A stretch of DNA of 64,000 nt from Antrihabitans stalagmiti (GTDB lineage Bacteria; Actinomycetota; Actinomycetes; Mycobacteriales; Mycobacteriaceae): assembly GCF_016482825.1 (NCBI RefSeq), contig NZ_JAEMNV010000010.1, forward strand, positions 124,001 through 188,000. The letters run 5' to 3'. Position 1 is the first letter of the stretch, and each line of letters starts with the position of its first letter. Positions 8,056 through 58,870 of this stretch are shown here, piece by piece. The position numbers and the translations under genes are program-made. Under the pieces are notes generated by a model. It was not told the DNA's origin, searched no databases, and was given only the letters and a program-made list of their open reading frames with translations.

Positions 8056-8076
8056 CCGCGTCGGGAGGGTTTCGGC

Positions 8077-9627: not shown

Positions 9628-9645
9628 GGGTGCGACGATTGCCCG

Positions 9646-10035: not shown

Positions 10036-10055
10036 TCGAACGGGTCAGGCGTCGG
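10021..10055. terminator. Possible shared hairpin between DUF2237 and smc
   Basis: CCTGA at 10031-10035 can pair with TCAGG at 10045-10049, extended by outer GCCG/CGGC pairs with bulges. It spans both convergent stop codons. There is no T-run, so this is only a weak candidate for a bidirectional transcript end. Confidence 0.3.
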
Positions 10056-14172: not shown

Positions 14173-14174
14173 CA

Positions 14175-15161: not shown

Positions 15162-15192
15162 TCTCCGCCCGCTGATCTCGGCCGGACGTCGG

Positions 15193-15681: not shown

Positions 15682-15716
15682 TACGTTGTCTCCGTTTACT
15701 TTCGAGTGTGCGACGT

Positions 15717-16886: not shown

Positions 16887-16889
16887 CAG

Positions 16890-18089: not shown

Positions 18090-18099
18090 CGTCAGAGCA

Positions 18100-18561: not shown

Positions 18562-18587
18562 ATCGACATCCTAGGTAGGCACCCCGC

Positions 18588-19268
18588 TCACGCAGGATCG
18601 GCGTCCGGAACTCCACAGGCGGCAACTCCATAGGCGGCGATGAACAGTCGAACCGCCTCATCGGCGTAGCGGTGCAGCCGTCGAATGCTCGGCGGATCGA
18701 CTCCGACGACGAACATGGCCTCGTTCAACGGAACCGAAAGAATCAGGTAGTTGAGGTTCTGGGCCGCGAGCATGGGGTCGGTCGCTCTCAGCAGCCCGCG
18801 GGCGGTGAGTTTGCGGATCTGTTCGGCGAGGCTCCGATGCCCACGTTCGGGCCCGGCACGATGCCACGCAGCCGCGACATCGGGAAAGCGCTCGGCCTCG
18901 GCGATGATCATGCGCCGCATCCGGACGAGGTCCGGCGCGGTGACGGACACGACATGATCGCGCGCGAAGCGGCGCAGGTCGCCTTCGATGTCGGTGCTGT
19001 CACCGAGGCTGTCGACGAGGGGCCGCGAGGCCGCGGCGACGTCGTCTATCGCCGTGGTGAAGACAGCGGTGAACAGGCTCGGCTTGTCCGAAAAGTGTTT
19101 GTATACCGTCACTTTGGACGCTCCGGCCAGCTCTGCGACGTCGTCCATCGTTGCGCCCGCATAGCCGTGCCGCAAAAATACCTCGCGCGCGGCGGCCACG
19201 ATCGCAGCACGTTTTCGGTCCGACCGACTGCTGCCCGTTCCGACTACCTGATCGCCTTTCTTCACCAC
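18588..19268 (-). CDS. TetR family transcriptional regulator
   Basis: 226 residues. The N-terminal helix-turn-helix is clear: AAREVFLRHGYAGATMDDVAELAGASKVTVYKHFSDKPSLF (about residues 25-65). The C-terminal part resembles the AefR-like group. GTG start. It diverges from the hydrolase gene at 19368, and the gap holds two similar operator-like sequences, so it most likely represses that gene and itself. The ligand is unknown. Confidence 0.93.
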   Translation of the reverse strand: MVKKGDQVVGTGSSRSDRKRAAIVAAAREVFLRHGYAGATMDDVAELAGASKVTVYKHFSDKPSLFTAVFTTAIDDVAAASRPLVDSLGDSTDIEGDLRRFARDHVVSVTAPDLVRMRRMIIAEAERFPDVAAAWHRAGPERGHRSLAEQIRKLTARGLLRATDPMLAAQNLNYLILSVPLNEAMFVVGVDPPSIRRLHRYADEAVRLFIAAYGVAACGVPDADPA

Positions 19269-29852: not shown

Positions 29853-30549
29853 CTATGACGAGGCCGCAACGAGTAGTTTGTTCAGCCTCTCGGCCGGGTT
29901 CTCCCATTCGAGGGTCTCGCGCGGGCGACCGTTGAGTTGATCAGCGACGAAGTCGAGCCGCTTGCTCGAATGCACCGACAGATCGGTGCCTTTCGGGAAG
30001 TACTGACGCAGCAACCCGTTGGTGTTCTCGTTGGAGCCACGCAACCACGGCGATCGCGGATCACAGAAATAGATCTGAATGCCGCGACCGACCGCGAACT
30101 GGGCATGCTGACTGATTTCGGCGCTCTGACGCCTGCTGATAGGTCGAGTCAAAGCCCGCGGCAACGTCACAATCTTCCGGGCCATCGCCGCCCGCACCTG
30201 CTCCGCGGAATACCCATCGGGCAAGTGCAGCAACATGACGAACCGCGTTCTGCGCTCGACAAGCGTGCCGATTGCCGACGCGTCCGAGGCACCCATGATT
30301 AGATCTGCTTCCCAATGCCCCGGCACCGCGCTTCGATCGTCAGGTTCCGCGGGACGTTCGACGATGCTGATTTTCCCCAGCGCCTTCCCGCGTTGCTCCC
30401 CTGATCCGCTGCGCAGTGCTCGATCACTCCGAAGATGTTCTACCAGTGCACGTTTGAGCCCGCCGCGGGACTGGACGTAAAGACCGAGGTAGACCGTTTC
30501 GTAAGACAACTGCATCTTCGCATCGTACGGACACTCGCGGACCCATTAG
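29853..30549 (-). pseudogene. IS30-family transposase remnant
   Basis: Homology to IS30 transposases runs from WVREC (just after a stop codon at about 30550) through SYETVYLGLYVQSRG, VPGHWEADLIMG (first catalytic Asp), FCDPRSPWLRGSNENTNGLLRQYFPKGTDLS (catalytic Glu) to the normal C-terminus. The N-terminal DNA-binding half is missing. Where the second catalytic Asp is expected (LTWDQG in relatives) the sequence reads LTRPISRRQSAEI: the motif is lost and four extra codons are present, so the enzyme cannot be active. Matches to known IS ends were not found. Confidence 0.85.
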
Positions 30550-32775: not shown

Positions 32776-34095
32776 CTATGCCCGGGCGAAGCTCTGCGCG
32801 TCGGAGTCACGTTCGCCTGCGCACTCCCGACGTTCGACGATCGATCGCACGATTTCGCCCGATCGAATCGCGACGTTGGACAGCAGCGACGACGTCAGAC
32901 CGTGCGAGTTCTCGGTTCCGCCTTGCAGATAGATGCCGGCGTCGACGTCCGTTCTGGTCGCCACTCGATAGTCGCGCGCAACGACGACCGGACCTGCCGT
33001 GTCGTCGACGAGGTCGCCGAAGATCGACGACATGGGTGTCGGAAGAAAACCGGTTGCCAACACGATGGCATCGCACGGTAGCGCATCGGTGAGACCGTCG
33101 AGATTGCTTCGGACCTCTACTTCGATTCCGTCCTCCAGCTCGCGGATTCCGACCACGTCGGATGCGCGGCGCATGAACAGTCGCCGTTGCCCGCGAACAC
33201 GTTCCTGGTATTCGGTCTTGTACAACTCGTTGATGAGGTCGAGGTCGACGACGGAGTAGTTGGTACTGCGATGCAGTTCGATCACTTTGCGCCGCTCGTC
33301 GTCGGGGGCGCTGTGCAGTTCGTCGACAGCGGCTGGGTCGAAGATCCGATTTGCATACGGGCTGTCGTCCGCCGGGCTGTAGCCGAATCGCGAAAAGACG
33401 CTGTGCACTTCGGCATCCGGGAAATTCGTATGCAGGTACTGCACGACCTCTGCGGCACTCTGGCCCGCGCCGAGAACGACGAACCGATTGTGCACAGGCT
33501 CGGGCAACTCGGCGATGCGGAAGAGGAACTGGTGATTGTGGAAGCATCGCCGCGACGGTGTTGCCCACTCAGGTATCCGTTGCTGCAACCCCGCGCCGAA
33601 CGACACGTTTCGCGTCGCAATCTGCAGACCGTCCGTGGTTTCGACGATCACGTGACCACCTGCACCGTGCTCGTCATGTGCGGCGCGGACCCGTTGCACC
33701 GTTCGGCCGTACCTGACGTCTGCAGCGACCTTCTCGGCCGCCCATTCGAGGTAGTCGTGAAATTCGTGGCGGGTGGGGAAGAACGTCTGGTGATTTACGA
33801 AGTCGACGAGACGTTCGCGGTCGAACAGATAGGGCAGGAATCCGAATTTGCTGGTCGGATTCCGGAAGGTGGCCAAGTCTTTCGGGAACGCGATCTGCAT
33901 CGTCGTGCCCTCGAGGAGCATTCCCCGATGCCAGCCGAAGCCCTGTTGCCGCTCGACGAAGCACGCCCGGATCGGTCGTTCCTGCAAATGTTGCTCGTTG
34001 TACTCGGCAACAGCGATGGCGAGCGCGAGATTCGCAGGACCGAACCCGATGCCGACTATGTCGTAAATGTCGTTTTCGTGGTCACTAGCTTTCAT
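32776..34095 (-). CDS. L-ornithine (or lysine) N-hydroxylase, siderophore biosynthesis
   Basis: Flavin-dependent N-hydroxylating monooxygenase, 439 residues, of the PvdA/SidA/IucD family; makes the hydroxamate precursor using FAD, NADPH and O2. FAD site GIGFGPANLALAIA at residues 15-28; substrate-side MQIAFPKDLATFRNPTS; NADPH site VVLGAGQSAAEVVQYL near residue 210; ATGFLPTP near residue 348. The partner formyltransferase gene favours N5-hydroxyornithine as product. An iron box lies 25 bp upstream, so it has its own iron-regulated promoter. Comparable to the monooxygenase of the rhequichelin locus (RhbE). Confidence 0.93.
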   Translation of the reverse strand: MKASDHENDIYDIVGIGFGPANLALAIAVAEYNEQHLQERPIRACFVERQQGFGWHRGMLLEGTTMQIAFPKDLATFRNPTSKFGFLPYLFDRERLVDFVNHQTFFPTRHEFHDYLEWAAEKVAADVRYGRTVQRVRAAHDEHGAGGHVIVETTDGLQIATRNVSFGAGLQQRIPEWATPSRRCFHNHQFLFRIAELPEPVHNRFVVLGAGQSAAEVVQYLHTNFPDAEVHSVFSRFGYSPADDSPYANRIFDPAAVDELHSAPDDERRKVIELHRSTNYSVVDLDLINELYKTEYQERVRGQRRLFMRRASDVVGIRELEDGIEVEVRSNLDGLTDALPCDAIVLATGFLPTPMSSIFGDLVDDTAGPVVVARDYRVATRTDVDAGIYLQGGTENSHGLTSSLLSNVAIRSGEIVRSIVERRECAGERDSDAQSFARA

Positions 34096-34119
34096 CGTCG
34101 CTCTCCATGCCCGTCATAG

Positions 34120-34138
34120 ATAGTGCAGCCTAACCTTA
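34120..34138 (-). promoter_or_regulatory. Iron box (IdeR/DmdR type) upstream of the N-hydroxylase gene
   Basis: On the minus strand TAAGGTTAGGCTGCACTAT matches 14 of 19 positions of the IdeR consensus TTAGGTTAGSCTAACCTAA, with an unbroken AGGTTAGGCT core. It lies 25 bp before the ATG, where an iron-loaded repressor would block transcription. Confidence 0.75.
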
Positions 34139-34180
34139 TCCTGGTTACCGGTCCAATGCTGGCGACCTCCAGCGCCCTCC

Positions 34181-35200
34181 CTAGTCGACTCCCATCGCTG
34201 CCGAAAGCACTGGCCACGACGTCCGCAACGCGTCCTGCCAGTAGAGCCAGGAGTGCGTTCCGGTCGGCCTGAAGTCGAATTGCGCCGGAATGCCCAGGTC
34301 AGAGAGTCGCTGCTGCAGCCTGTGGGAGCAGTAGTTCGTCACCGACTCGATAAAGCCCCCGACGGCGATCTGATCCTGCAACGGCGGCGAGCCGGTCGGC
34401 CTGGACACACCCGGCATCTCGTACGGACCCGGCAAACCGGTTGCGCTCGATATGAACAGTGCGGTTCCGCGCAACTTGTCGGCGTTGACGTACGGATCAT
34501 GGAGTGCCCACGCCGGATCGCCGGGTGGACCCCACATATTCCTCGTGTCACCTTTACCGCCACCCTCGACGACGATCCGGATGAGTGCCTGACCGATCGG
34601 GTCGCTCGTCATCGCGCAACCGCTGTAGGACGCGACACCGCGGTAGAGGCCGGGTGCCTGTACCGCAAGGTCGAGGACCGACCCTGCGGACATCGACAGT
34701 CCGCCGATCGCATTCACACCATTCGCGCCGAGCGCGTCATCGAGCACCGGTGGCAATTCCCGGGTGAGAAACGTTTGCCACATATTGCGGCCGAGTACTG
34801 GGTCCTGGCTACGCCAGTCCGTGTAATAACTCAGATACCCGCCCACTGGAATGACGACATTCACGTCCTTGTCGGCGAAGAAATCGACGATATCGGTCTG
34901 TCGGATCCAATTGGCACCGTCCTCCCCCGCTCCGGCGCCGTTGAGTAAGTACAGGGTCGGACGAGCCATCGACGTATCGCGTGGACGCAACACCTGAAGT
35001 TTGATCACCTCGTCCATCGACGGCGAGTAGACGAAAACATCCCAGCGACGGTCGCCGATCTCTTCGATCCGGTCGAGGCTGCCAACCTGTGCTGATGCGA
35101 TTGGCTCGGCCGTGGCGAGAGGGGATCCGGCGAGCGGGGATCCGGCAAGCACGACGACGGCCGATGCAATCGCAAAGAACAACGACCCGATGCGTGTCAC
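34181..35200 (-). CDS. Secreted mycolyltransferase / esterase-D-fold protein coupled to the NRPS
   Basis: 339 residues of the antigen 85/corynebacterial mycolyltransferase group. A signal peptide ([20 protein letters not shown], cut near ATAEP) precedes an alpha/beta-hydrolase domain: [16 protein letters not shown], nucleophile Ser near residue 169 in GGLSMSAGS, catalytic His near residue 315 in GTHSWLYW. The GTG start overlaps the NRPS stop (GTGA), and its GGAGGT ribosome-binding site is made of the last NRPS codons, so the two are translationally coupled. Typical role is moving mycolates between trehalose lipids; the same fold includes the siderophore esterases Fes and IroE, so a role in siderophore release or processing outside the membrane is possible. 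Confidence 0.87.
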
Positions 35201-38200
35201 CGTTCTACCTCCAATTGCTCGGCGGCCCAGTCTCGTTCGAGGTATCGACCAACAAGCGGCCCGACCGTTTCGAGGGTGTCGGCGGTACACATCTGCCAGT
35301 GGGTGCAGTCGATCCGGTGGTTCGCCACGATCCGTTCGACGTACGGGAGCCAGGAGTCGGCGGTGCGCGCTACGTCCGAACGTCCTGCGGCAGCAGTGAA
35401 GAAGAGCACGTCACCGTCGAACCGTCGTGGGGTGTGCAGCCTGAGCAATGCCGCGTTGTGTTCGGCAGCTTCGACGAGCCTGTGAATCTGCTCGGGACTC
35501 GCCGGAAGCTCGACACCGTCGAGCTGGGTGAGCAGTTCGTCGGTCGAATCCACTGTCAGGCTGTCTATCTCGACTTCGAGATCGCCCGATAGACCCAGAC
35601 CTGCAAGCAGGTCGCCTGTTCGGAGTTGCTCATCGTGCGAATCCACTGGGTGGGCAACGCTGTCCAACAGCACAAGTGCATCCACACTCTCGCCCGCATC
35701 GCGCAAGGCGACTGCAATCGCATGCGCGAGAACGCCGCCGAGCGACCAGCCGACCAGATGGTAGGGGCCCGACTTCTGGATCGCGCGAATCTCGGCCGCG
35801 TACCGGACTGCGAGCGCGTCGATCGACTCGGGCAGCACTTCGGCACCCAGGGCTGCAGGCGTCTGTATCCCGTAGATCGGCCTCGTCCCTTCGACGTGCG
35901 GTGCGAATGTCGAATAACACCAGGACAATCCGACGATCGGATGGATGAAGAAGACAGGAGCATCGGGACCGGAAGTTCTGATCGGCAGCACGATGTCGAA
36001 GGCCCCTCCCGATTCATCCGATTCGGGAGAGTCGATCAACGCCGCGATCGAGGATGGGGTCGGGTCGGTCAGAAGCCACTGCAACGAGACCGGTGCGTTC
36101 GTCTTCTCGCGCAACAGTGCAAGCGCGCGCATCGCGATCATCGAATTGCCGCCGAGGTCGAAGAAATTGTCGTCTGCCCCGATGTCGGGGGCGCCGTCGC
36201 TCCGAGGGCTGAGCACCTGCGCGAAGATCTCCGTAATAGCGACCTCGGTCGGTGTCGACGGCGCCCGATACGGCACTCTCGCAGCAAGTGTCGGTGTCAC
36301 CAACGCTGCTTCGTCCAGCTTTCCCGTCGGCGTACGCGGGATCGACCCGATCGCGACCACAGCTGCCGGAAGCATGTGCCGCGGTAGAAATTCCGCCACG
36401 AACGCGATGATCTGCGCGCTGTCGGGTGCGCTCCCCTTGGTCGGGACGACATACGAAATCAACGCCGTCTCACCGTTGTCGACGGTTCTCGCGAGCGTCA
36501 CGCAGTAGTCGACGTCCGCGTGTTCGACAAGTGCTGCGTCGATCTCGCCGAGTTCGATGCGGTGGCCACGAATCTTGACCTGGTTGTCGCCGCGCCCACG
36601 ATATTCCAGTTCGCGGTCGGCATTCCAGGCAACAACGTCGCCAGTGCGATACATCCGCGCACCCGCGTCACCGAACGGATTCGCAACGAAGCGCTCCGAC
36701 GTCAACCCGAGTCGTCCGTGATATCCGCGTGCCAAACCTGGCCCTGCCACGTACAACTCGCCCGCGACGCCACGCGGGACCGGTCGCAACCGGGTGTCGA
36801 GCACCATTACTTCGAACCCGTGCACAGGTGTGCCGATCGCGATGGGCTTGCCTACGAGCAGTTCGGCAACAGTCGATATATCCGTTGCCTCCGTCGGGCC
36901 GTAGCCATTGAGCAAGACCCGTCCCGGTTGCCAGCGTGCGACGAGTTCGGCATTGCACGCTTCGCCACCGACGCCGAGGACGGCAAGCGAGTCGAGCCCC
37001 TCCGGATCGAGTGCTGCAAGCATGGTCGGTGTGATCAGCGCGTGTGTGACGGCCCTCGATGTCAAGAAGTCGGTGAACTCCTCTGCACTCCCCGGCGCCG
37101 GCGACACAACGAGTGTCGCTGCCGCGGACAGCGCCGAGATCATCTCCCCGACGGCCATGTCGAAGCTCGGCGAGGTGTTGTGCAGGAACCGCGATGTCGG
37201 CTGCACGCGGTAGCGTTCGCGCCGCTCCGCAGCCAGATTCGCCAGACCGGAATGCGTGACGACGACACCCTTCGGTACGCCCGTCGAGCCCGACGTGTAG
37301 ATCATGTACGCCGGATTCGACAATCGAACGGGTGCTAGAAGTTCGTCGGTATCGATCGCAGCCGTCGATGCCCCGGCCAATTCCTCTTCGCACTCGTCGA
37401 GCACCACCCAGTCGACCGTGTCCGGCAGACCCGGTCGCTGTGCAGAAGTAGTCACACCGATAGCCGCACCGGAGTCCGTCAGCATGTGTGCGATGCGATC
37501 CGCGGGATACGTGGGGTCCACAGGGACGAACGCGGCGCCCGTCTTCGCCACCGCCCACACCGACCGAACCGAGTCCGCCGAGCGCGGCAGTGCGAGTGCA
37601 ACGAAAGTCTCGGGTTCCGCACCGCGCGCGATCAGCATTCGAGCGACCCGGTTGGCCCACGCATCCGCGTCGGCGTAGGTGTGATCGCGGCCTGCCCAGT
37701 GCAGCGCCACACCGTCCGGATGCTGTTGCACCGCAGTGGCTATCAAGTAAATCAGCGTCGACGCCGGTGCACTCGACCGTCCTCTGGCCGGTGCAGTTCG
37801 CCTGGCTTCGTCGGCACCGATGATGTCGATCACACCGACCGGAATATGTTCGTCCCCCGCCAGGGCTTCGAGTACTCGCACAAGCTGATCGCGCATCTGC
37901 GTCGCGAACTCGGTCGTGAACAGGGCCGTCTTGTACTTCAGCGTCAGCGTGAGCGTCGTACCCGCGACGATAGTGAGGGTGAACGGGTAGTGGGTCTCGT
38001 CTCTTCCGCTGACACCGACGACGCGAACACCGTCGATTGCGCCAGCGGCAGCGACGGTCGCCGCGTCCACCGGATACGACTCGAACACCGTCAAGGTGTC
38101 GAAATCGGCTGCGTCACCGGCAATCCGCTGAATATCGGACAGGCCGAGATGGTGGTGGTCCAGCAGGGCTGCCTGTTCCGATTGCACGCGGACCAGCAGG

Positions 38201-39186
38201 TCGGCGATCGTTTCGTCCTCGTCGAGAGCAATCCTGACCGGCAGTGTGTTGATGAACAGTCCGACGATCGACTCGACTCCTGGCAGGTCCGCGGGCCTGC
38301 CCGACACGGTGGCACCGAACACGACGTCATCGCGACCGAGCATGCGCGCCAGAACGATTCCCCACGATGCCTGCACGAGAGTGTTCATGGTGACGCCAAG
38401 GCGCGCGCCGACACCGGTGAGTCGAGCCAGCAACTCCGCCCCGGTGTCACAGACGATGGCACCTGTGACCCCAGCCCCGCTCGCTGCGCCATGTGCGAGC
38501 AAAGTCGGCTGATCGAGGCCTGCAAGTGCTGCCGTCCAGGCCTGCGCCGCAGCATGGTCGTCGCGCTCGGCAAGCCATGCCAGGAAAGTCTTGTACGACG
38601 GAACCCGTTGCAGCATCGAAGAGTCCGCATTCGTTGCGTAGAGAACCAGCAGGTCTTTCAGCAAGAGCGGCATCGACCAGCCGTCGACGTTGATGTGATG
38701 CAGCGTGACGACGAGACGGTAGTTCAGTGGACCGCAGCGCACCAGAGCGAAACGCACGAGCGGAGGTGCATCCAACTCGAACGGAGTGCCGAGTTCGCCG
38801 GCCTCGGCGGCAGCGATTGCGGAGGTCAGGTCCGTCGATCCGCGCAGATCTATTTCACGCCATGGCGTCTCGACTCGGTCGAGAACGAGCTGAACCAACT
38901 GCCCGGACGACGTTGCAACGAATGCGGTGCGCAAGGTCTCGTGCCGGGCGAGCAACGCGTCGACTGCAGCGCGCATTCGATCCGTATCGAGAGGACCATT
39001 CAATTCAAGCGATTGTTGCGTCGTGTACGGGTCGACGGACTCCGTCGCCAACTGGGTGTGAAAAGCGAGGCCCCGCTGCAACGCCGACAGCGGCCACACA
39101 TCGGCTAGTCCGGAATATGTTGCTTCCCACCGGGTCAGGTCGGTCTGCGTGACTCGAGCCAACGCGACGTCGGACGGCGTCAAACC
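35197..39186 (-). other. NRPS module 6 (C-A-T-TE), residues about 6191-7519
   Basis: The C domain (HHINVDGWS near 6355) is of the type that follows an epimerase. The A-domain code DMGLGGGDIK equals module 5, so the last two residues are probably the same amino acid in D and L form. Carrier GGNSM near 7203. The thioesterase ([16 protein letters not shown], nucleophile in GWSLGG near 7338) resembles that of EntF and would release a linear or cyclised peptide. Confidence 0.87.
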
Positions 39187-42100
39187 GGGATCGGCACCAC
39201 TGCGAACGTAGTCGGCCAGTGCGTGCAGCGCGGTCGTCCAGTTCGCGGCCAGTTCGCTGACCTCGGCATTGGAGAGCAGGCCGGAGGGATAGGCAAAGGT
39301 CGCGGTCAGCGTGGGTGCGCCGTGCTTATCGGTCACGATCGCATTGATGTCGAGCACGGCGGGTGCGGGCATGGTCGCATTGGCGCGGGCACCGACATCG
39401 CCGAGATCTGTTGGTGTCCAGCCCAGTTCGGACAGACCGACCGGAATTTCGGAACCCGACACACGGCCGAGATAGTTGAAGCTGAGCTGCGGATCGGGAA
39501 GGGCTGCAAGCACATCGGAGGTGTCGGCACCCAGGTGTCGGAGCAGGCCGTAGCCGATCCCGCGCCGTGGCACCGCATGCAATTGTTCTTTCACCGTCTT
39601 GACGGCCTGCGCGAGCTCCCCCGCCGAGCCTTGGTCGACGTCAGCGAGATCGAGCCGCACCGGGTAGACCGAGGTGAACCACCCGACAGTCCTGGACAGA
39701 TCTGCACCCGGGACTGCCCATTCCTCGCGCCCATGGCCTTCGAGCTGTAGCAGCAGAGACGACTCGTCCGCACCGCGCGCAGCACGCCACCGCCGCACCG
39801 CAATTGCGAGCGCGGCAAGCAGGCCGTCGTTGACGCCGCCTCGGAAAACCGACGCGATACCAGTGAGCAGCGCCTCGGTATCCGCGGCGTCGAGCTCGAC
39901 GCAGACGTGCTCGACGGTCTCGATCGTGTCGATCATGGGATCGAATGCACGCGAGCCGAGATCGGGATCGGAACCGGCCGAGACGTCGCGCCAGTGGTCG
40001 AGTTCGGCCAATGTTGCAGGGTCCACGGCAAGATCGGCGAGCGAGTGCGCCCATCGCCTGAAGGAAGTACCGACCTCGTCGAGAACCGGAGCCGCCCCGG
40101 ACCGAAGCTGTGCCCACGCCGACACGAGATCGGGCACGAGAACCCGCCACGAGACCCCGTCGATCACCAGATGATGCGCGACGACGACAAGGGCGCCCGG
40201 TTCGTTGACAGGGTCGAGCCAGACGAACTGCAGCATCCGACCCGCTGCGGGGTCCAATCGGTCGAGGGCGCAATCGACTTCGACCCGCGCCGTCGCGGCG
40301 ACATCGCCACCCTGCGCGAGTTCGCAACGATGGACGAGCGCATCGACGTCGACGGTTCCCGCTGCTGCCACGTCGAGCTGTGCCTGCTCGCCGTTGCCAA
40401 CGACCCGCGCGCGCAGCAGATCATGGTGGTCGATAACCGTACGCAAGGTTGCGACGACTCCGGCCCTGTCGATACCGGTCGGCAACGAAAGCGCGACCGT
40501 CTGCGCGTAGCGGTCGAAGTGACCACGAGCGGTCATCAGTCGCATGACGGGTGTCAGTGGTAGCGAACCGATACCGCGACCGGGAAGCTCGTCGAGCACC
40601 GGCACAGGGTCGCCTCCGGCACGGTGCGCGAGAGTCGCCAATGCCGCAACCGACTTCTGTTCGAAGACATCGCGGGGCGAGAAGACGATTCCGCGGGCCT
40701 TTGCACGAGAGACCAACTGGATCGACGCGATGCTGTCCCCGCCGAGCGCGAAGAACGAGTCGTCGCGACCCACCCGCTCCACGCCTAGCAGCTCGGCGAA
40801 CACGGCCGCGATCGCCGATTCCGTTTCGCCCTCCGGCGCAGTGAACTCGACTGCCGCAGTGACGAACTCCGGAGTCGGGAGCGCGTCGCGGTCCAGTTTG
40901 CCGTTGACCGTGACCGGTAGCTCATCGACGACGACATAGGCGTCGGGCAGCAGCTGCCGCGGTAGCGAATCTTCGAGACTTGTGCGCACAGCCGCCGAAT
41001 CGACTGCAGAACCAACGAGATACGCGGCGAGGCGTTGACCCAGCGGCGTCGCGTGCACGAGCACAACCGCCTGGCGAACGCCCGGTGAGCGAACCGCGGC
41101 GGCTTCGATTTCCCCCAACTCGATGCGATGGCCACGAATCTTGACCTGGCCGTCACTGCGGCCGTGGTAGACGAGCTCGCCTTCGCTGTTCCAGGCGACG
41201 ACGTCACCTGTGCGGTACATCCGCTCTCCCGGTTCACCGTACGGATTCGCGACGAAACGCTGCGCACTCAACCCACGGCGGCCGTGGTAGCCACGCGCCA
41301 GTCCAGGACCCGCGACGTACAGCTCACCGACAACACCGACAGGAACCGGGAGCAACCGCGTGTCAAGAACCTGAACGCCGAACCCATGCACGGGGATACC
41401 GATCGATACCGGCTTGCCGGCGGAAAGTTCTGCAACAGTGGAGATATCGGTGGCCTCGGTGGGTCCGTAGCCGTTCAACATAACGCGACCTGGCTGCCAG
41501 CGCGCTACGAGTTCCGGGGTGCACGCCTCACCGCCGACGCCGAGTACCTCGAGCATCGGATGCGCGTCGGGTGCGATCGTCGCCAGCACGGCAGGTGTGA
41601 TCAACGCGTGGCTGACGCTTTCCCGATCGAGCAGTTCCGCAAGCGCATCGCCGCCGACGGAGGACGTCGGCGCAATCACCAACGCGGCGGCCGCCGACAA
41701 CGCGGACACGATTTCTCCGACCGCCATGTCGAAGCTCGGTGATGCGGTGTGCAGGAATCGCGACGAGGAGTCGATGCGGTAGCGCACACGACGTTCGGCC
41801 GCGAGGTTTGCCAATCCGGTCCCGGTGACGACGACGCCCTTCGGCACGCCGGTCGAGCCGGACGTGTAGATCATGTAGGCGGCATTGTGTAGTCGCGCAG
41901 GCAAAATTCGGTCGGCATCGGTGATCGGATCGGTTGCTGCCGAGGCAATCTCGTCGACGATGTCGTCGAGAACCAGCCACGTCACCGAATCGGGCAAGCC
42001 GGATCGCAGTTCTGCGGTGGTGATACCGAGCGCAGCACCCGAGTCGCCCAGCATGTGCGCAATGCGCTGCGCCGGATACGACGGATCGACCGGGAGGAAC

Positions 42101-51100: not shown

Positions 51101-54100
51101 ACTTGCTCTTTCGCAACGAGATCGGCGAGGTAGCGGGGGTCTCGGTGGCCGTCGTGCTCGGCTATCACGACGCGGGCGCCCGTCAGCAACGGCCAGAACA
51201 ATTCCCACACCGACACGTCGAAAGTCGCGGGCGTCTTGTGCAGGACGACGTCGTCGGTGTCGATCGGATAGCTGTCCTGCATCCACAGCAGACGGTTGAC
51301 GATCGCGCCGTGCGAGACCGCCACACCTTTCGGACGGCCGGTCGAACCCGATGTGTAGATCACGTAGGCGGCATTGGCGGGGGTCGGTGGGATGAGGGGC
51401 GCCAACGATTCCGCACCCGCCATCACGTCGTCGAGGTCGACGGCTGTGTTCGCTGCCAGCAAGTCGGCATCCGCGCGCGAGCCCAGGACAAGATCGGGCT
51501 CGGCACTTTCGAGGATGTGCACCATCCGGGCGGTCGGTTGCGTCGGGTCGATCGGGACGTAGGCACCACCGGCGCGGACGACAGCATGAATGGCGATCAG
51601 ATAGTCGAGGCTGCGCCGCATTGCTATTGCGACGAGCGACTCCGGACCGATCCCACGCGAGGCAAGTTGGCGTGCAACAGCATCGGCCCGCTGTGTGAAC
51701 TCGGCGTACGTCAGCGATATGTCGTGATCGAGCACGGCGACAGCGTCCGGATGCAGCATGGCGGCTGCGTCGAGTAGATCGACCAACGTGGACTCAGGGA
51801 CCGCGGATGCTGTGGCATTCCACTCGTGCAAGACAAGTCGGCGCTCGTCGGAATCGATGATGCCGATCGAACCGACTGTGGCCGTCGGTCGTGACACCAT
51901 CGCGTCGAGCACTGCGGCGAATCTACGGCCGATGATCCGTGCCGCATCGTGGCCGACGACGCCGGGAGCGTATTCGAGGGTGATGCGCAGCGTCGGCTCC
52001 AGCGTCACCACGACGGCGACGGGATAGTGCGTCGCATCCGCGACGTCGATGCCGGTGACTCGCATACCTGCGAAGTCGGTGTGCTCGTCGAGACCCGCCC
52101 GATCCACTGGATAGGACTCGAACACCGTCAGTGTGTCGAAGACAGCGCCTGTTCCGATCCGAGCCTGGATGGCGGCGAGGCCGATGTGGTGGGCATCGAG
52201 TAGTTGTGCCTGTTCGATTTGCAGTCTGCTGACGAGTGCGCCGACCGGTTCGTCACGATCGGTCCGCACCCGAACAGGAATCGTGTTGATGAAGAGTCCG
52301 AGCGTCTCACCTGCGCCTGCGAGCGCAGCGGGCCGGCCGGACACGGTTGCCCCGAAGACGACGTCGTCGCGAGAAAGCAGACGCGCAAGCAGTATTCCCC
52401 AACCGGTCTGTACAACGGTGTTGACCGTAGCCCCACTCGATCGGGCGAGTTCGGCAAGCCCGGCGACAACCTCGGCCGAGATCGGAATGTCGTGCTCGGC
52501 GGGAACCGCCGCTGAGCGAACATCGATATCCGGAACGAGCAACGTCGGACCGTCGACGCCGTCCAGTGCGCGCGCCCAGTCGTCGAGAGCGGCATCCGAA
52601 TCCTGCCCGGCGAGCCACTGCAGATAGTCCGAATAGCTCGGTGCAGCAATCGGTATCGAAGCATCCGTCAGATAGAGGACGAGCAGGTCCTTCACGAAGA
52701 GTGGCATCGACCAACCGTCGAAAAGAATGTGGTGGTTCGTGATCACGAGGGTCGCGGCCGCACGATCGGAGGCGTCGCTGTGCCGAACGAGCACGAACCT
52801 GATGAGCGGCGCCGTCGCCATGTCGAACCGCGACGACCGTTCCTGTGCCGCGACCACTCGGGCGTCATCGCCATCGACCTCACGCCACGGCACGTCGAGA
52901 TCACCAAGAACGAGCTGAGCCGCAACACCATCCGCGTCGTAGACGAAGGCGGTCCGCAGTGTGTCGTGCCTATCGAGCAGACGCTGCGCCGCACGATGCA
53001 TTCGGGATGCATCCACATTCCCGCCGAGTTCGAGCACGATCTGGCCGACGTAGACATCGACGTCCGCCGAGGTGAGCGTCGCATGAAACAGCAGACCCGC
53101 CTGCAGTGGCGCGAGCGGCCAGATATCACGCAACTGCTCGAACTGCGCCTCCCACAGGTCTATTCGCGTCTGGTCCACCGAGACCAGTGGGACGTCGGAC
53201 GGAGTCAAGCCGCCGGCAATGCCCGACGCGGTGTGCGCGACCAAGCCTAGTAGGGCAGTTCGCCACAGTTCGGCGAACTCGGTGACCTCGTCGTCGCGAA
53301 GCACCTCGCGCGGGTAGGCAAACGACGCCGAGAGTCGATCGCCCTCGACAACCGCGGCGTTGATGTCCAGAACGTAGGCGACCGAGAGGTCGGCGCCGCT
53401 GCGCCCGTTGAGATCGATGTCCGTGCGGGGCACCCATCCGGTGCCTGCCGGTAGCGCCGCGAGCCCGGGGGCATCGATTCTGCCGAGGTAGTTGAAGCTG
53501 ATCTGCGGTGCCGCAAGCCCCGCCGCCTCATCGTCGAAATCGGAACGTGCATAACGCAGCAGACCGAATCCGATGCCGCTGCCAGGTGCCGCGCGCATCT
53601 GCTCCTTGACCGCTTTCAGTGCGCGACCGGCATTCGCGCCGCCTACCAGTGCGTCCGCGATCTCGATGTCGGACAACGACAATCGGACCGGGTAGGCGGC
53701 GGTGAACCAGCCGACCGTTCGCGACAGGTCGGCACCCGGCACCACCGTTTCGTCGCGGCCATGGGTCTCGGTCGTCACGAGGATCGGATGGTCGGGTCGC
53801 CACGACGCGAATGCGATTGCAAGTGCGGTCGCCAACACGTCGTCGACGCCGCCACGAAACGATTCCGGAACGGTCGTGAGCAGCGCCCGCGTCACGTCGG
53901 GTTCGACGTCGATCCGCATACGTTCGACGCTCGACCCGGTGTCGGTCGGCTCGAGCGGTCGGGACCCGAGCGGCGTCGGCGCGCAGTCGAGCGTCGCAAT
54001 CCAGTGCTCGCGTTCGCTTTCGACGTGTGCTGCCAGATCCGCGAGCGCGTGGGCCCAGCGACGCATCGACGTTCCCACCGGTGGCAATGTGGGTGCCTCG

Positions 54101-57100
54101 GCGGTACGAACCTGCTGCCAGGCAACAGCGAAGTCGGGCAACAGAACTCGCCACGACACACCGTCGACGACAAGATGGTGGACGACGAGAACGATCTGGG
54201 ATTCGGCCTGCGCGCTGACCGCCGGCTCGATCCACACCACTTGAAGCATCACGCCGGATCGCGGCGCGAGGCGACCGACGGCAGCAGCGGTGACGTTCTC
54301 CAGCAACGCAACTGGATCGACGCCGACTGCCAGTTCCACCCGACTGACGATGTCGGCCACGTCGACACTCCCCGCGGGAGCAACGACAAGTTCTTCACCT
54401 CGAAGTGTCGCCCGCAGACCATCGTGCTGGTCCAGAACCACGCTGACCGTCCGACGCAGTGCGTCGGAATCGAGATCGGCTGGTGCTGTCACAACAACCG
54501 CTTGGTAGAAGCGATCGACGGCACTCTCCGTCGGAGCCCTCCCGAGTACCTCACGCATGATCGGCGTCAATGGTATTGCGCCGACCCCTGCACCGGGCAA
54601 CTCCGGCAACCGAACCTGCTCACCCGCATCGGCTTTCGCAGCTATCAGCGCAAGCGCGGCGACGGTCTTGCGTTCGAAGACGTCGCGTGGTGTGAAGACA
54701 ACTCCCACGGCGCGCGCTTTCGAGACAAGCTGGATCGCGATGATGCTGTCGCCACCGAGAGCAAAGAACGAATCGTCGACCCCCACACGTTCCAGACCGA
54801 GCACGGCCCCGACGGCATCAGCGATCGTCTTCTCGATAGTGTTCGTCGGTGCACGAAAAGGACTGGTGGACAGTGCAACAGGATCGGGTAGCGCGCGGCG
54901 GTCGACTTTGCCCGCCGGTGTGAGCGGAACTGCTTCCACCTCGACGAATACGCCGGGCACCAGGTGTATCGGCAAGAACTCAGCAGCGAAACTACCGAGT
55001 GCCGCCGAGTCGACCCTGTGCCCGGCAGCGGGCGTGACATAGGCGACCAGGGCGCCGTTCCTGACATCGGTGAGCGCGAACGAGACCGATTCGTGCGCAG
55101 CCAGTACCGCGTCGATCTCACCGAGTTCGATTCGCACGCCGTTGATCTGGACCTGTTGATCACCGCGACCGACATAAAGAAGTCGAGCATCGGCGACGCC
55201 GTCCCAGCGAACCAGATCACCGGTGCGGTAGAGCCGCTGCCCCGACCGATACGGATCGGCGACGAACCGCGCTGCTGTCAGCTCGGGCCGATCGTGGTAC
55301 CCCCGTGCCAGTCCTGCCCCGCCTACGTAGAGTTCGCCGAGAGCGCCGGGCGGCACCGGGCGTAGCCACCGGTCGAGGACGACCGCCCTCATCCCATCGA
55401 TCACACGCCCGATCGTCACGTCGCGCGAATCTGACAGTCGTTCGGAGACCGTGACGACGATGGTCGATTCGGTCGGTCCGTAGCTGTTGTAGAAGCGGCA
55501 CCGATCACCGAATCGATCGACGAGGTCGGGCGGGCAGATATCGCCGCCGACCACGATGGCTTCGAGATCGTCGAGTTCCTCGCCCACCGTCGAGAGCACC
55601 GCCGGCGCCGAGATGATGTGCGTTACCCGCTGCTCCCTGAGCAGCGTCGTCAGATCGTCGCCGCCGTAGACGTCGTTCGGAGCGATGACCATCGTCGCGC
55701 CCGCACTGAAAGCGGCGATCATCTCGAAGATGGAGGCATCGAAGCTGGACGACGAAAACCGAAGTACGCGTGAGGATGTGCCGATACCGAGCTCTGCGCG
55801 ATCAGCAAAAGCAGCGAGACCCTCGTGAGTGACGACCACACCCTTCGGAGTGCCCGTCGACCCCGACGTGTAGATCATGTAGGCCGCGGCTGCCACATCC
55901 GGCCGCGCCGACTCAGCAGGCGCAGGTGGTCCAACGCTGTCGGCCCCGGGCAGCGTCACCCATTCGACGTCGCGGGGTAGCGTCGAGAGTTGTTCGGAAC
56001 CAGCGAGTCCCAGCGCAACGCCGGAATCGGTGAGCATGTGCCGAATACGCTCGACCGGGTAGGTCGGGTCGATCGGCACGAACGCCGCACCCGATTTCGC
56101 GACCGCCCACACCGCGACGACAGACTCTATACCACGTGGAAATGCCACCGCGACAAAAGATTCCGGCCCTATACCGCGGTCCGCAAGCGTTGCAGCCACG
56201 AAATCCGACCAGTGATCGAGTTCGGCGTAGGTGAGCGATCGATCACCACAAACGAGAGCCGCACCTGTCGGGTCGGCCGCGACGCCGCGCCGGAACAGGT
56301 CGGCAAGCACTGCGGGTCGCACCGCCCGCGGCCCCTGAAACGGGACAAGAGCGCCACGTTCGGAGTCGGTGAGCACATTCAGTTCGAAGACGCGGTCGTT
56401 GCTCGCTGCGTCCGCGAAACCCCCAAGCAGCGAAAGGAAACGACGATAGTGATCGCTCACCTCGCTCGCGGCGTACCTGTTCGGATTCGCTTCGAAGTCG
56501 ATTCGTGCGCTGCCCTCGACGCTCGGATACAGGTTGATCGAGAGGTCTTCGACGGGTCCCGTCGACAGCACGTTGAATCGCCCCGGCACCGATCCGAGCA
56601 GCACGTCCGAAGGGAAGTTCATGATGTTGATCGCCGGACCGTAGAAACCGCGCGCGCCACCGGCACCGGCATCGCGACGAAGGTCCTCCGACCTGTAGCG
56701 CTGATGCCGAAGTGCACCGGTCAGTTCGAGTCCGACGGCGGCTACCAGTTCGTACACGGTCGTCGTCGGTGTGATCGACACCCGTAGCGGCACGACGTTG
56801 GAGACCATGCCGCCGGAACGGCGCAGCACCGCGTTCGTGCGGGCGGAGACAGGCAGGCTCAACACAATGTCGTCGAGGCCGGTGAGCCGTGACAGATAGG
56901 CGGCGACCGCGGCGATCACCACCGCGGTGTCGGCGGACTCGAATCTCGTCGCGGCCTCGCCCATCGACGTGACCAGTTCCTGCGACAGCAACCCTCCGAC
57001 GACCTCGGGACGCGACCGCATCGGTCCGGCGCGCGCGGCGAGGCTGATCGGATCAGCGAGGTCGTCGGCCTTACTCGCCCAGTAGTCGCGGTCCTTGGTG

Positions 57101-57756
57101 TACCGCGTCGACGATCGGTAATCGGCTTCGGCGGCGTTGAGAGACGTCAGGTTCGGCACTTTCGACGCCGGTGCGTCCGTCCCCGTCACTGCGGCGGTGT
57201 ACAACTCCGCAACACGATTCATAAAGAGAATCGCGCCGTACCCGTCGAGAGCGATGTGATGTATGCAGGAGTACCAGTAGTAGTGGTCGGCACCGAGCTG
57301 CAGTACGGCCGCGTTGATCAGCCTGTCGGTGAGCAGATCGAGCGGCTCCGAGTAATCGCGCAGCATCCATTCCATCGCCGCTGCAGCAGGGTCAGGTTCC
57401 GCACGGAGGTCGACGCGCTCGATCACGTCGTTGAGCGACGGATCGACGATTTGGTGCGGTTCACCGGCTATCTCGACCAGCCGCAGCATGCCGCTACCGA
57501 CCTCGTGTGCTGCGCGCCTACACGCCTCCTGCAGAACGTCGAGGTCGAGGCGACCTCTGACCTCGACGTAGTTCGCGATGACGATCGGTACGTGTGGCGC
57601 GAGATGCTGGGCGAACCAGATGCCTCGCTGCGCGACCGTGAGAGGAAAGGAGTCCGCTGCAGAGCCGGCTGGGGTGGCCGGGCGAAGGTTGGCGTGGGCA
57701 GCCAACGACTCTGCCGATTCCAAGTGAACCTCTCCGGTGTTTCGAGTGCCGGACAT
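35197..57756 (-). CDS. Six-module nonribosomal peptide synthetase (hydroxamate siderophore)
   Basis: 7,519 residues in one unbroken frame. Domain order: C-A-T-E, C-A-T, C-A-T, C-A-T, C-A-T-E, C-A-T-TE. All six carrier domains keep their Ser (GGDSI before the two E domains, GGNS elsewhere); all six A domains have the YTSGSTG-type loop (FTSGSTG in module 4); both E domains have HHLVxDGVSW. It should build a hexapeptide with D residues at 1 and 5, Ser at 2, released by the C-terminal thioesterase (GWSLGG near residue 7338). Neighbouring N-hydroxylase and formyltransferase genes point to hydroxyornithine or formyl-hydroxyornithine units. An iron box lies 51 bp upstream. The ATG has a weak ribosome-binding site; a TTG at codon 12 has GGAGAGG before it and is an alternative. 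No MbtH-like gene or transporter is nearby. Similar in gene context to RhbD of rhequichelin, but with six modules. Confidence 0.95.
39187..43715 (-). other. NRPS module 5 (C-A-T-E), residues about 4681-6190
   Basis: The C-domain active motif reads HHISADR instead of HHxxxDG near residue 4815: both His and the Asp are kept, the Gly is Arg. A-domain code DMGLGGGDIK, identical to module 6 and not one I can assign. Carrier GGDSI near 5673; E-domain [10 protein letters not shown] near 5863, so residue 5 should be D. Confidence 0.85.
43716..46884 (-). other. NRPS module 4 (C-A-T), residues about 3625-4680
   Basis: C domain HHIAADGFS near 3759. The A-domain code read by eye is DVWDFILVSK: the frame resembles the Ser code, but the positions matching His278, Ser301 and Asp331 are changed, so Ser is doubtful. 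The A and T parts share the G/T-rich coding strand of module 3. Carrier Ser near 4624. Confidence 0.8.
46885..50059 (-). other. NRPS module 3 (C-A-T), residues about 2566-3624
   Basis: C domain HHIAADGFS near 2703. The A-domain code is DAFVVGSIVK, one residue from module 1, so modules 1 and 3 probably load the same or a similar residue. The coding strand here is markedly richer in G and T than in modules 1, 2, 5 and 6, giving runs of Val and Gly. Carrier Ser near 3573. Confidence 0.85.
50060..53205 (-). other. NRPS module 2 (C-A-T), serine-specific, residues about 1518-2565
   Basis: The C domain (HHILFDGWS near 1677) starts with the [13 protein letters not shown] form typical of domains that accept a D-residue donor, fitting the upstream epimerase. 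The A domain reads DVWHFSLVDK, the well-known serine code. Carrier Ser near residue 2516. Confidence 0.9.
53206..57756 (-). other. NRPS module 1 (C-A-T-E), residues about 1-1517
   Basis: The C domain (HHIALDG near residue 169) is EntF-like: it shares WYWY-type residues before the HH motif, a [16 protein letters not shown] segment and [14 protein letters not shown], all with close counterparts in EntF. The A-domain code read by eye is DAFIVGSIVK (last Lys assumed), which I cannot assign. Carrier Ser near residue 1003; E-domain His pair near 1195. A first-position C domain suggests an acyl or aryl cap on residue 1, which would be a D residue. Confidence 0.85.
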
Positions 57757-57806
57757 CCGTCTCGTGCGCGGTCGAACGGGGAGTGATCGAGCAACTCCAA
57801 GTTCGG

Positions 57807-57825
57807 TTAGGTTTGCATAACCTTT
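57807..57825. promoter_or_regulatory. Iron box between the NRPS and formyltransferase genes
   Basis: TTAGGTTTGCATAACCTTT matches 15 of 19 positions of the IdeR/DmdR consensus and is nearly palindromic (AGGTT/AACCT arms). It is 51 bp from the NRPS start and about 100 bp from the formyltransferase start, placed to control both divergent genes by iron. Confidence 0.8.
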
Positions 57826-57925
57826 GCTGGTCGGTCAAGCTGGGAGGGCACCTCGCGGGGAGCACACGCTGGTTCGCAATCAGCCGACGCAACCACGCCG
57901 CCGATAGCAGAAAAGGTCAATTCAC

Positions 57926-58870
57926 ATGCGCGTAGCGACATTCGGGTACCAGACGTGGGGTCACAAGACCCTGCAGGCGGCCATCGACTCCGGCCACGAC
58001 GTTGTGCTTGCCGTCACACACCCGCGTAGCGATCACGTATACGAGACGATCTGGTCGGATTCGGTCGAAGATCTGGCACGCGCGAACGGCATTCCCGTCC
58101 ATCTCGCCAAGCGGCCCGACGATGCTCTACTCGCGGCAGTCACCGAAGCCGCGCCCGACATCATCATCGCCAACAACTGGCGGACCTGGCTCCCCCGCGA
58201 GGTGTACGACTGGCCCAAGTTCGGCACGCTCAACCTGCACGATTCGCTGCTGCCCAAGTTCACCGGCTTCTCCCCCGTCATCTGGGCAGTCATCAGCGGA
58301 GCCGAACAGGTCGGCCTCACCGCACACCGCATGGACGAAGGACTCGACACAGGAGACGTCCTGCTGCAGAGCGCAGTGCCGATCAGGCCCGACGACACCG
58401 GTACCGATCTCGTGCGCGCAACCATCGACCTGATCCCCGACCTGCTCACCGAGTCGCTACGCCTGATCGAATCAGGCGAGGCAACCTGGACACCGCAGAA
58501 CCTCGACGACCGCACGTTCTTCCACAAGCGCACGGAAGGCGACAGCCGCATCGATTGGCGTTGGCCTGCCGAGGCGATCGAGCGTTTCGTCCGCGCCCTG
58601 TCGGACCCCTACCCGAACGCGTACACCTACTTCCGAGGTCAACGCCTACGGATCCTCGAAGCCTCCGTATCGCGCTGCGTGTACGGCGGCACGCCGGGTC
58701 GGGTGTTCATTCGTGAGGGCAAAGGCATGGTGATCGTCGCGGGCGCCGATGCCTACCTCGGCCAGGGCCGTGGCTTGGTGATCGAGCGAGTCCGTACGGA
58801 CGACGGCGTCGAGCACAACGCCGACGAATTCTTCCCACACGGCGGCGGCTACCTGACCGACGAGGCATAA
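57926..58870 (+). CDS. Hydroxyornithine formyltransferase (methionyl-tRNA formyltransferase-like)
   Basis: 314 residues. The formyl-tetrahydrofolate-dependent active site is present: Asn-x-His in LNLHDSLLPKFTGFSP (about residue 107) and the Asp in MDEGLDTGDVL. A C-terminal domain (about 205-314) follows. It is unlikely to be the housekeeping Fmt because it diverges from the siderophore NRPS across a shared iron box and begins MRVATFGYQTWGHKTL rather than like Fmt. It would N5-formylate N5-hydroxyornithine, as CchA and RhbC are thought to do. AAAAGG precedes the ATG. Confidence 0.92.
   Translation: MRVATFGYQTWGHKTLQAAIDSGHDVVLAVTHPRSDHVYETIWSDSVEDLARANGIPVHLAKRPDDALLAAVTEAAPDIIIANNWRTWLPREVYDWPKFGTLNLHDSLLPKFTGFSPVIWAVISGAEQVGLTAHRMDEGLDTGDVLLQSAVPIRPDDTGTDLVRATIDLIPDLLTESLRLIESGEATWTPQNLDDRTFFHKRTEGDSRIDWRWPAEAIERFVRALSDPYPNAYTYFRGQRLRILEASVSRCVYGGTPGRVFIREGKGMVIVAGADAYLGQGRGLVIERVRTDDGVEHNADEFFPHGGGYLTDEA

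What the first reader, a model, noticed from the sequence alone, without database searches (positions are those of the whole stretch)
32776..58870. A six-module hydroxamate siderophore locus whose product does not fit the described rhodococcal siderophores I know
One giant NRPS (six modules, two epimerases, thioesterase), a flavin N-hydroxylase, a formyltransferase and two iron boxes are seen directly. The same enzyme trio is known from the rhequichelin locus, where a tetrapeptide is predicted; a hexapeptide with D residues at 1 and 5 and Ser at 2 would be different. The chemistry of positions 1, 3, 4, 5 and 6 is open. The inference that several positions are (formyl-)hydroxyornithine rests on the neighbouring enzymes.
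Basis: partly seen in the sequence, partly recalled or inferred. Interest (0 to 1): 0.78.

Follow-up and report, generated by a model that had tools for sequence, protein, structure and literature searches.

The report
Siderophore synthetase coupled to mycolic-acid transferase
An actinobacterium carries what looks like an iron-regulated enzyme assembly line for an undescribed iron-scavenging peptide, and the gene that follows it looks able to fasten the peptide to the cell's waxy outer membrane, which would be an unusual way of making an anchored siderophore.

Summary
In detail: one 7519-aa six-module NRPS (starter C, two E, TE), an N-hydroxylase, a formyltransferase and two iron boxes. The genome is an Antrihabitans, not Rhodococcus proper. 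No adenylation code is a canonical hydroxyornithine code, whereas the rhequichelin-type locus of a relative shows both; so it is not that pathway.

34181-35200 is a secreted mycoloyltransferase; its closest solved relative is Cmt1/MytC, which puts mycolic acid on serine of proteins. A start codon overlaps the NRPS stop by 4 nt in 21 of 21 NRPS-linked loci of its branch, and module 2 reads Ser in 17 of 17 loci read. Positions 5 and 6 are the likely hydroxamate residues: loci ending in DMGLGGGDIK twice have an iron box (7 of 7); four-module loci ending in DMGLCGGDIK have none (0 of 12).

Best reading: an iron-regulated N-acyl hexapeptide dihydroxamate siderophore, O-mycoloylated on Ser2 and so envelope-anchored. 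Locus assignment is strong; residue chemistry and mycoloylation are inferred. New variant of a known kind.

The parts
32776..34095 (-). N-hydroxylating flavin monooxygenase (ornithine/lysine type)
   Evidence: PF13434 E 2.4e-98. Best solved chains MbtG (435 bits), KtzI (343), L-ornithine 5-monooxygenase 3s5w (245). On the tree it lies with the rhequichelin-type hydroxylases, 21 rows, SH-aLRT 99.
34120..34138 (.). iron box (DtxR/IdeR-type operator) before the hydroxylase
   Evidence: 4 mismatches to the consensus; 3 mismatches at the same place in YC2-6.
34181..35200 (-). secreted mycoloyltransferase, Cmt1/MytC-like; start GTG overlaps the NRPS stop by 4 nt
   Evidence: PF00756; Cmt1 E 8.2e-77, 262 bits, PS1 162, Ag85A 110; triad S169/E285/H316 in 60 of 60; start codon at -4 in 21 of 21 loci. 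Signal peptide judged by eye.
35197..57756 (-). six-module NRPS, 7519 aa: Cstart-A-T-E / C-A-T / C-A-T / C-A-T / C-A-T-E / C-A-T-TE
56332..57681 (-). starter C domain (C1), motif HHIALDG
   Evidence: nearest solved chains 7c1k (224 bits; recalled as a starter C), CDA synthetase I 4jn3 (213), ObiF1 171, EntF 170; NCBIfam MxcG model, N-terminal part, 332 bits
54847..56382 (-). A1, code DAFIVGSIVK; E follows at 53251-54606: D residue 1, substrate open
50308..51867 (-). A2, code DVWHFSLVDK (serine)
   Evidence: substrate from the recalled Stachelhaus table
47137..48735 (-). A3, code DAFVVGSIVK, substrate open
43984..45573 (-). A4, code DVWDFILVSK, substrate open
42361..43704 (-). C5 with HHISADR in place of HHxxxDG
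   Evidence: this Gly is lost in 7 of 7 loci of the group with DMGLGGGDIK twice and kept in 13 of 13 four-module loci
40834..42399 (-). A5, code DMGLGGGDIK; E follows at 39226-40596: proposed hydroxamate residue 5 (D)
36259..37830 (-). A6, code DMGLGGGDIK: proposed hydroxamate residue 6
35227..35961 (-). terminal thioesterase, motif GWSLG
   Evidence: PF00975 E 4.9e-26
57807..57825 (.). iron box in the divergent NRPS/formyltransferase promoter
57926..58870 (+). formyltransferase (proposed: formylates the hydroxylamine)
   Evidence: PF00551 + PF02911; 85% identical in YC2-6, 77% in G046, divergent from this NRPS in both

Best explanation
Iron-regulated biosynthesis of an acylated hexapeptide siderophore that is then fixed to the mycolate outer membrane. 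SHOWN in sequence: iron boxes stand before the hydroxylase and between NRPS and formyltransferase; the NRPS has six modules; a secreted mycoloyltransferase follows it with a stop/start overlap. INFERRED: the hydroxylase N-hydroxylates ornithine (lysine less likely); the formyltransferase makes the N-formyl hydroxamate; A5 and A6 take this residue (D at 5, L at 6); the starter C domain puts an acyl group on residue 1; the product is about acyl-D-X-Ser-X-Y-D-fhOrn-fhOrn, released by the TE. After export the mycoloyltransferase moves a mycolate from trehalose monomycolate to the Ser2 hydroxyl, as Cmt1/MytC does on Ser of PorA, so that the siderophore stays in the mycomembrane and hands iron over there, a role like that of mycobactin with a different lipid.
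For: Architecture. Conserved iron boxes. The one strong PF13434 match of the genome is here (330 bits, next 42), and none of 43 other readable AMP-binding domains has a canonical hydroxyornithine code or DMGLGGGDIK. Millisia brevis has hydroxylase, formyltransferase and one module Cstart-A(DMGLGGGDIK)-T-TE together. Loci with DMGLGGGDIK twice: iron box 7 of 7, formyltransferase in genome 7 of 7, altered C motif 7 of 7; four-module loci with DMG(L/V)CGGDIK: 0 of 12, 5 of 13, 0 of 13. Mycoloyltransferase: nearest solved relative Cmt1 by 100 bits; passages read call Cmt1 (CMytC) protein-selective and show MytC acting on Ser15 of PorA (PMC11066868; PMC11927696). 19 of 20 high-ranked homologues fetched lie directly behind an NRPS, 5 of 20 lower-ranked; on a tree of 60 rows the NRPS label needs 5 changes, 20.3 when shuffled, 0 of 500 as low; start codon at -4 in 21 of 21; Ser at module 2 in 17 of 17 read.
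Against: No A code is a canonical hydroxyornithine code, so residue chemistry rests on comparison. Two hydroxamates give four donors; a third ligand or a 2:3 complex is needed. The best solved match of the hydroxylase is the lysine enzyme MbtG. The two comparison groups come from three genera and one genus, so the 7/7 against 0/12 split may be a single event. The mycoloyltransferase also sits behind four-module NRPSs without iron box, so it is not siderophore-specific; no acceptor is known, and it might act on TMM or as an esterase. 10 of 31 NRPS-linked mycoloyltransferases lie outside its branch, and the branch itself has SH-aLRT 93, under the 95 mark. None was found beside the one-module NRPS of Millisia. 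Only 2 of 4 genomes of the genus showed the hydroxylase at the threshold used. No transporter was seen in the locus, and the genome's one MbtH is elsewhere. In G219 hydroxylase and formyltransferase lie in a rhequichelin-type locus that has its own use for them.
Confidence: 0.45

Rival explanations
1. Ordinary secreted hydroxamate siderophore: NRPS, hydroxylase and formyltransferase work as proposed, and the mycoloyltransferase-like protein is an esterase or a housekeeping mycolate enzyme whose gene merely rides on the operon.
For: PF00756 also holds siderophore esterases (recalled); there are 13 homologues at E up to 1e-12 in this genome; none was found beside the Millisia NRPS.
Against: Among 24 solved relatives the strong ones are all mycoloyltransferases or Ag85-like proteins, and the few weak others (E 4e-9 to 5e-4) are not named as siderophore esterases. 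21 NRPS-linked copies share one branch and all have a start codon at -4, rather constant for a passenger.
Confidence: 0.3
2. Aryl-capped mixed-ligand siderophore: the starter C domain takes 2,3-dihydroxybenzoate or salicylate from the separate C40 locus, giving one aryl ligand plus two hydroxamates, six donors, as rhodochelin draws on genes elsewhere in the genome. (Compatible with mycoloylation.)
For: C40 holds a DHB-AMP-ligase-like protein (639 bits, under the 723.55 cut-off) and an iron-siderophore-binding-type lipoprotein; C1 also resembles the N-terminal parts of the MxcG and EntF models. Six donors would be complete.
Against: Among solved chains, 7c1k and CDA synthetase I score higher than ObiF1 and EntF; the same C1 opens four-module synthetases without iron box; C40 has its own synthetase with C, A and two carrier domains. 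Whether the relatives have such a ligase was not tested.
Confidence: 0.2
3. N6-hydroxylysine rather than hydroxyornithine at positions 5 and 6, which would explain the non-canonical codes. (Compatible with mycoloylation.)
For: MbtG is the best solved match of the hydroxylase (435 bits against 343 for KtzI).
Against: The hydroxylase groups with the one that stands beside an NRPS with canonical ornithine-type codes in G219, apart from seven copies of genus g30, probably the mycobacterial ones (inference).
Confidence: 0.15
4. The NRPS makes a mycoloylated lipopeptide that is no siderophore, and hydroxylase and formyltransferase only share the neighbourhood.
For: The three four-module sisters read in full have neither enzyme beside them, and 12 of 12 examined have no iron box.
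Against: Iron box shared with the divergent formyltransferase in three genomes; no other readable A domain of the genome with a hydroxyornithine code.
Confidence: 0.1

Closest known systems
Rhequichelin/rhodochelin-type locus (R. equi, R. jostii; passages and section 8 of PMC5550956)
   Same: Enzyme set: N-hydroxylase of the same clade (67% identical to the G219 copy), formyltransferase (65%), an NRPS.
   Different: In G219: four modules with canonical codes and a C-terminal C domain; no TE and no mycoloyltransferase found in the 26.5 kb read. The window has six modules with other codes, a TE and the mycoloyltransferase. That G219's locus is of this type is my reading of its order and codes.
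Exochelin-type locus (read here in Mycolicibacterium sp. J2)
   Same: Six A domains, formyltransferase, hydroxylase, iron boxes.
   Different: DINYWGGIGK first, then IDTLISSGDK (beta-Ala-like, recalled) and two DMENLGLINK; no starter C before the first A and no mycoloyltransferase found in 40 kb.
Cmt1/MytC of Corynebacterium glutamicum
   Same: Closest solved relative of 34181-35200 (262 bits), Ser, Glu and His of the triad kept; donor TMM, acceptor Ser of proteins (passages of PMC11066868 and PMC11927696).
   Different: Serves porins and other envelope proteins; the words siderophore and nonribosomal do not occur in PMC11066868.
Mycobactin
   Same: Envelope-associated siderophore of mycolate bacteria (PMC5550956 section 8); the role proposed here.
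   Different: Lipid put on by a different route and a different enzyme set (recalled).
Humimycin NRPS (IupU type)
   Same: Starter C and Ser at 2 in an acylated heptapeptide from rhodococci.
   Different: Tyr-Ser-D-Tyr-Phe-D-Thr-Val-Val, D at 3 and 5 (PMC12024397 Table 1); the seven-module locus of G219 has E at 1 and 6.

Membership tests
Hydroxamate NRPS siderophore locus | N-hydroxylase of the PF13434 family in the locus | tested here: met
   E 2.4e-98
Hydroxamate NRPS siderophore locus | iron boxes at the promoters | tested here: met
   two, both at the same places in YC2-6
Hydroxamate NRPS siderophore locus | A domain with a known hydroxyornithine code | tested here: not met
   six codes, none DINYWGGIGK or DMENLGLINK; the same method finds both in MycoJ2 and G219
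Hydroxamate NRPS siderophore locus | product chelates iron | not testable with these tools
   needs CAS assay and LC-MS
Rhequichelin/rhodochelin type | four modules in the order fhOrn, Ser-like, hOrn, fourth residue | tested here: not met
Exochelin type | initiating A(fhOrn) without starter C, beta-Ala-like module 2 (definition recalled) | tested here: not met
Ag85/mycoloyltransferase family | sequence relationship and Ser-Glu-His triad | tested here: met
Ag85/mycoloyltransferase family | transfers mycolate from TMM to Ser of a peptide | not testable with these tools
   closest to Cmt1/MytC, which does
Starter-C (N-acylating) NRPS | N-terminal C domain of the starter class with intact HHxxxDG | tested here: met
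   HHIALDG
Humimycin type | seven modules, E in modules 3 and 5 | tested here: not met
   six modules, E in 1 and 5

The most novel reading that the evidence does not exclude
There is a class of nonribosomal peptides in mycolate-bearing actinobacteria that are mycoloylated on a serine by a dedicated Cmt1/MytC-type enzyme translated in step with the synthetase (ATGA/GTGA overlap, four genera in the genomes examined). One branch of the class has become an iron-regulated, outer-membrane-anchored dihydroxamate siderophore; a Gly for Cys change in the last A-domain code, the doubling of that module and a changed C-domain motif mark the difference between the branches.
Probability: 0.4. Interest if true: 0.88.

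Novelty: new variant of a known kind. Interest (0 to 1): 0.7.

Why it matters
If right, the mycolic-acid outer membrane is used to anchor small nonribosomal peptides, a siderophore among them, and Cmt1-type enzymes, described in the passages read for proteins, gain a second kind of acceptor. It offers a genomic marker (NRPS stop overlapping a mycoloyltransferase start) for finding more such compounds in rhodococci and kin, whose synthetases mostly have no known product (PMC5550956 section 8: products of 71 of 79 NRPS families unknown). Comparing iron-boxed and box-free sisters also gives a way to assign an uncharacterised adenylation code.

Tried and rejected
Codes in print: five nine-letter codes (DMGLGGGDI, DMGIGGGDI, DAFIVGSIV, DAFVVGSIV, DVWDFILVS) gave 0 papers. 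Humimycin as the match of the seven-module sister: rejected on the positions of D residues. Fes/IroE-type esterase for 34181-35200: rejected. Plasmid relatives: only distant ones, under 60% identity. Literature on mycoloyltransferase with NRPS. Searches listed 20 of thousands of papers holding any two terms; one search listed all 9 that hold 'mycolyltransferase' and 'nonribosomal peptide synthetase', both of 2. I saw titles and starts of abstracts; none tells of such a pair; I did not read these papers. So 'not in print' means no more than that, in an open-access library. The rhequichelin paper (PMC3497440) is not held; its product is recalled or from PMC5550956. No antiSMASH, MIBiG or code predictor was at hand. 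Structure prediction and fold search were not used.

Anchor positions, canonical codes, the Ser code and the iron-box consensus come from memory; the control is that the method returns both canonical codes in MycoJ2 and G219. HMMs for A, C, E, T, C1 and TE were built from the window's own domains, so E labels elsewhere lean on the window; TIGR01720 is the independent check, for the window only.

Rows left out: of the 24 best rows I fetched 20; own and YC2-6 were in hand; G063 (contig end) and G082 were left out. Rows of about 60-66% identity were not fetched. The 20 lower rows (55-59%) were picked by hand. One search scored at most 5 candidates a genome, and its list was cut. G311 is not in the iron-box count (contig end), and its module number is assumed. 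Module 2 of G050, G296 and G314 was not read. Own-genome mycoloyltransferases were labelled on 1.5 kb flanks, checked by eye against the coordinates.
Full report
What is there. The window is contig C2, 124001-188000, of a 6.39 Mb genome. Four genomes of its genus are held, one of them with the coordinates of Antrihabitans sp. YC2-6, so the organism is an Antrihabitans (Nocardiaceae). The minus strand carries NRPS (35197-57756), mycoloyltransferase (34181-35200) and hydroxylase (32776-34095); the formyltransferase (57926-58870) is divergent. The NRPS is Cstart-A-T-E / C-A-T / C-A-T / C-A-T / C-A-T-E / C-A-T-TE. One iron box lies in the divergent promoter, one before the hydroxylase; both are found at the same places in YC2-6 and G046.

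What the codes say. DAFIVGSIVK, DVWHFSLVDK (Ser), DAFVVGSIVK, DVWDFILVSK, DMGLGGGDIK, DMGLGGGDIK. The same procedure returns DINYWGGIGK and DMENLGLINK, recalled as formyl-hydroxyornithine and hydroxyornithine codes, in an exochelin-type locus and in a rhequichelin-type locus of G219. The window has neither. Elsewhere in its genome 43 AMP-binding domains were read (one of them the C40 ligase; at least three fragments could not be read): neither canonical code and no DMGLGGGDIK. The one strong hydroxylase match is in the locus. So if the hydroxylase feeds an NRPS, it is this one, unless a synthetase is missing from the 44-contig draft.

Relatives. YC2-6 has the locus with eight modules. G046, of unnamed genus g19, has a 7516-aa NRPS with the same six-module order and the window's codes except for two letters at position 3 (DAFIVGSIIK), with mycoloyltransferase, hydroxylase and divergent formyltransferase. 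Four genomes of g23, probably large-genome rhodococci (inference), end in the same two modules; the one read in full, G219, has seven modules and an iron box, and its hydroxylase and formyltransferase stand in a rhequichelin-type locus; in the other three these two genes lie about 21 kb apart, as in G219. Thirteen g6 genomes have a sister NRPS ending in DMGLCGGDIK (one DMGVCGGDIK); three were read in full and have four modules, nine more have the starter C where four modules would put it. Millisia brevis has a single module Cstart-A(DMGLGGGDIK)-T-TE between hydroxylase and formyltransferase. Two of the four genomes of the genus (G001, G003) showed no hydroxylase at E 1e-110.

Which positions carry iron ligands. 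Loci with DMGLGGGDIK twice: iron box before the NRPS in 7 of 7, formyltransferase in the genome in 7 of 7, and the C domain before the second-last A has HHxxxDR or HHxxxDA in place of HHxxxDG in 7 of 7. Four-module loci: box 0 of 12 examined, formyltransferase in the genome 5 of 13, altered motif 0 of 13. Fisher p for the box is 2e-5, for the formyltransferase 0.015, but the groups come from three genera and one, so this may be one event. A DAF-type code like those of positions 1 and 3 stands at position 1 of the three box-free sisters read in full. I therefore place the hydroxamates at 5 and 6 and leave 1, 3 and 4 open. The hydroxylase falls in the rhequichelin-type clade, which argues for ornithine, although MbtG, a lysine enzyme, is the best solved match.

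The mycoloyltransferase. 34181-35200 matches Cmt1 of C. glutamicum at 262 bits, PS1 at 162, Ag85A at 110. Cmt1 is the same as CMytC (table in PMC11066868), called protein-selective there; MytC mycoloylates Ser15 of PorA in vitro with triad S189/E310/H341 (PMC11927696, passages). Ser, Glu and His are kept here and in all 60 homologues compared. In a search of 401 genomes I fetched 20 of the 24 best rows and 20 hand-picked lower ones: 19 of 20 and 5 of 20 lie behind an NRPS (p 1e-5). On a tree of 60 rows the NRPS label needs 5 changes against 20.3 in shuffles, 0 of 500 as low; 21 of the 22 rows of the window's branch (SH-aLRT 93) are NRPS-linked, the exception being the copy of another Antrihabitans, G003; 10 further NRPS-linked rows lie elsewhere, so the pairing seems to have arisen more than once. 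In all 21 a start codon overlaps the NRPS stop by 4 nt (other start codons nearby cannot be ruled out). Position 177, eight residues after the nucleophile, is Asp in 22 of 22 of this branch and in 1 of 38 others. Module 2 reads Ser in 17 of 17 loci where it was read (in L102 the module number is assumed). A sample of 397 genomes of the order found 5 genomes at E 1e-125, all in this family, so close members are not widespread.

How it most likely works. Shown: gene order, iron boxes, domain order, stop/start overlap, relationship to Cmt1. Inferred: formyl-hydroxyornithine at 5 and 6; acyl cap by the starter C; O-mycoloylation of Ser2 after export; anchoring in the mycomembrane. The cap may instead be an aryl group from the C40 locus, which would complete six donors. 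Solved chains recalled as acyl starters score higher than ObiF1 and EntF, though the MxcG model fits well too, and the box-free sisters share the domain; so I rate this second. With only two hydroxamates and a plain acyl cap the complex would have to be 2:3 or borrow a donor; that is the weakest point of the main reading.

Known or new. The enzymes are each of known kinds. By code and architecture the locus is not the rhequichelin or the exochelin pathway. A synthetase translationally coupled to a Cmt1-type mycoloyltransferase I did not find described (listings and abstract starts only). I rate it a new variant of a known kind; if the mycoloylation is confirmed it would be a new class of nonribosomal peptide.

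Noticed in passing
L053 (G000:C40:245000-264999), about 11500-19036: Separate phenolate-type siderophore locus: DHB-AMP-ligase-like protein, a 1176-aa synthetase with C, A and two carrier domains, a PF01497 binding protein and a weak PF13434 match (41 bits).
   Followed up: partly
G000:C12:690682-761000: Further very large synthetases (open frames of 5675 and 14997 aa); the last NRPS gene of the row is followed by a mycoloyltransferase 53% identical to the window's.
   Followed up: partly
L103 (G046:C17:43900-61964): Directly beyond the formyltransferase a second NRPS with its own mycoloyltransferase of the same branch and a start codon at -4; cut by the contig end.
   Followed up: partly
L037, about 4500-11000 (Millisia brevis): One-module synthetase Cstart-A(DMGLGGGDIK)-T-TE between hydroxylase and formyltransferase: a minimal relative and a good test of the code; only a weak box (5 mismatches).
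   Followed up: partly
L137 (G071:C22:160000-179999): Same genus as G046: another NRPS followed by a more distant mycoloyltransferase and a hydroxylase with an iron box; no formyltransferase at E 1e-60 in that genome.
   Followed up: partly
L106, L107, L109, L110, L115, L140, L141, L145: NRPSs followed by mycoloyltransferases outside the window's branch; the tight overlap was not checked there.
   Followed up: no
L047-L050, L146 (G001:C41, G003:C20) and L172 (G000:C12:645000-662000): The two other Antrihabitans have a 62-64% formyltransferase beside different synthetases; a synthetase with similar codes lies in the window's genome without one in the stretch read.
   Followed up: no
window 29853-30515: Transposase-like fragment (phrog_4646) next to a DUF222 protein, between kdpAB and the locus; kdpDE-like genes flank the locus in YC2-6 (by eye).
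   Followed up: no
L004-L011, L014, L016, L019 (Nocardia): Formyltransferases 59-62% identical stand near NRPS domains in 11 Nocardia loci; 5 of these 11 genomes had no hydroxylase match at E 1e-3, so their substrate is unclear.
   Followed up: no
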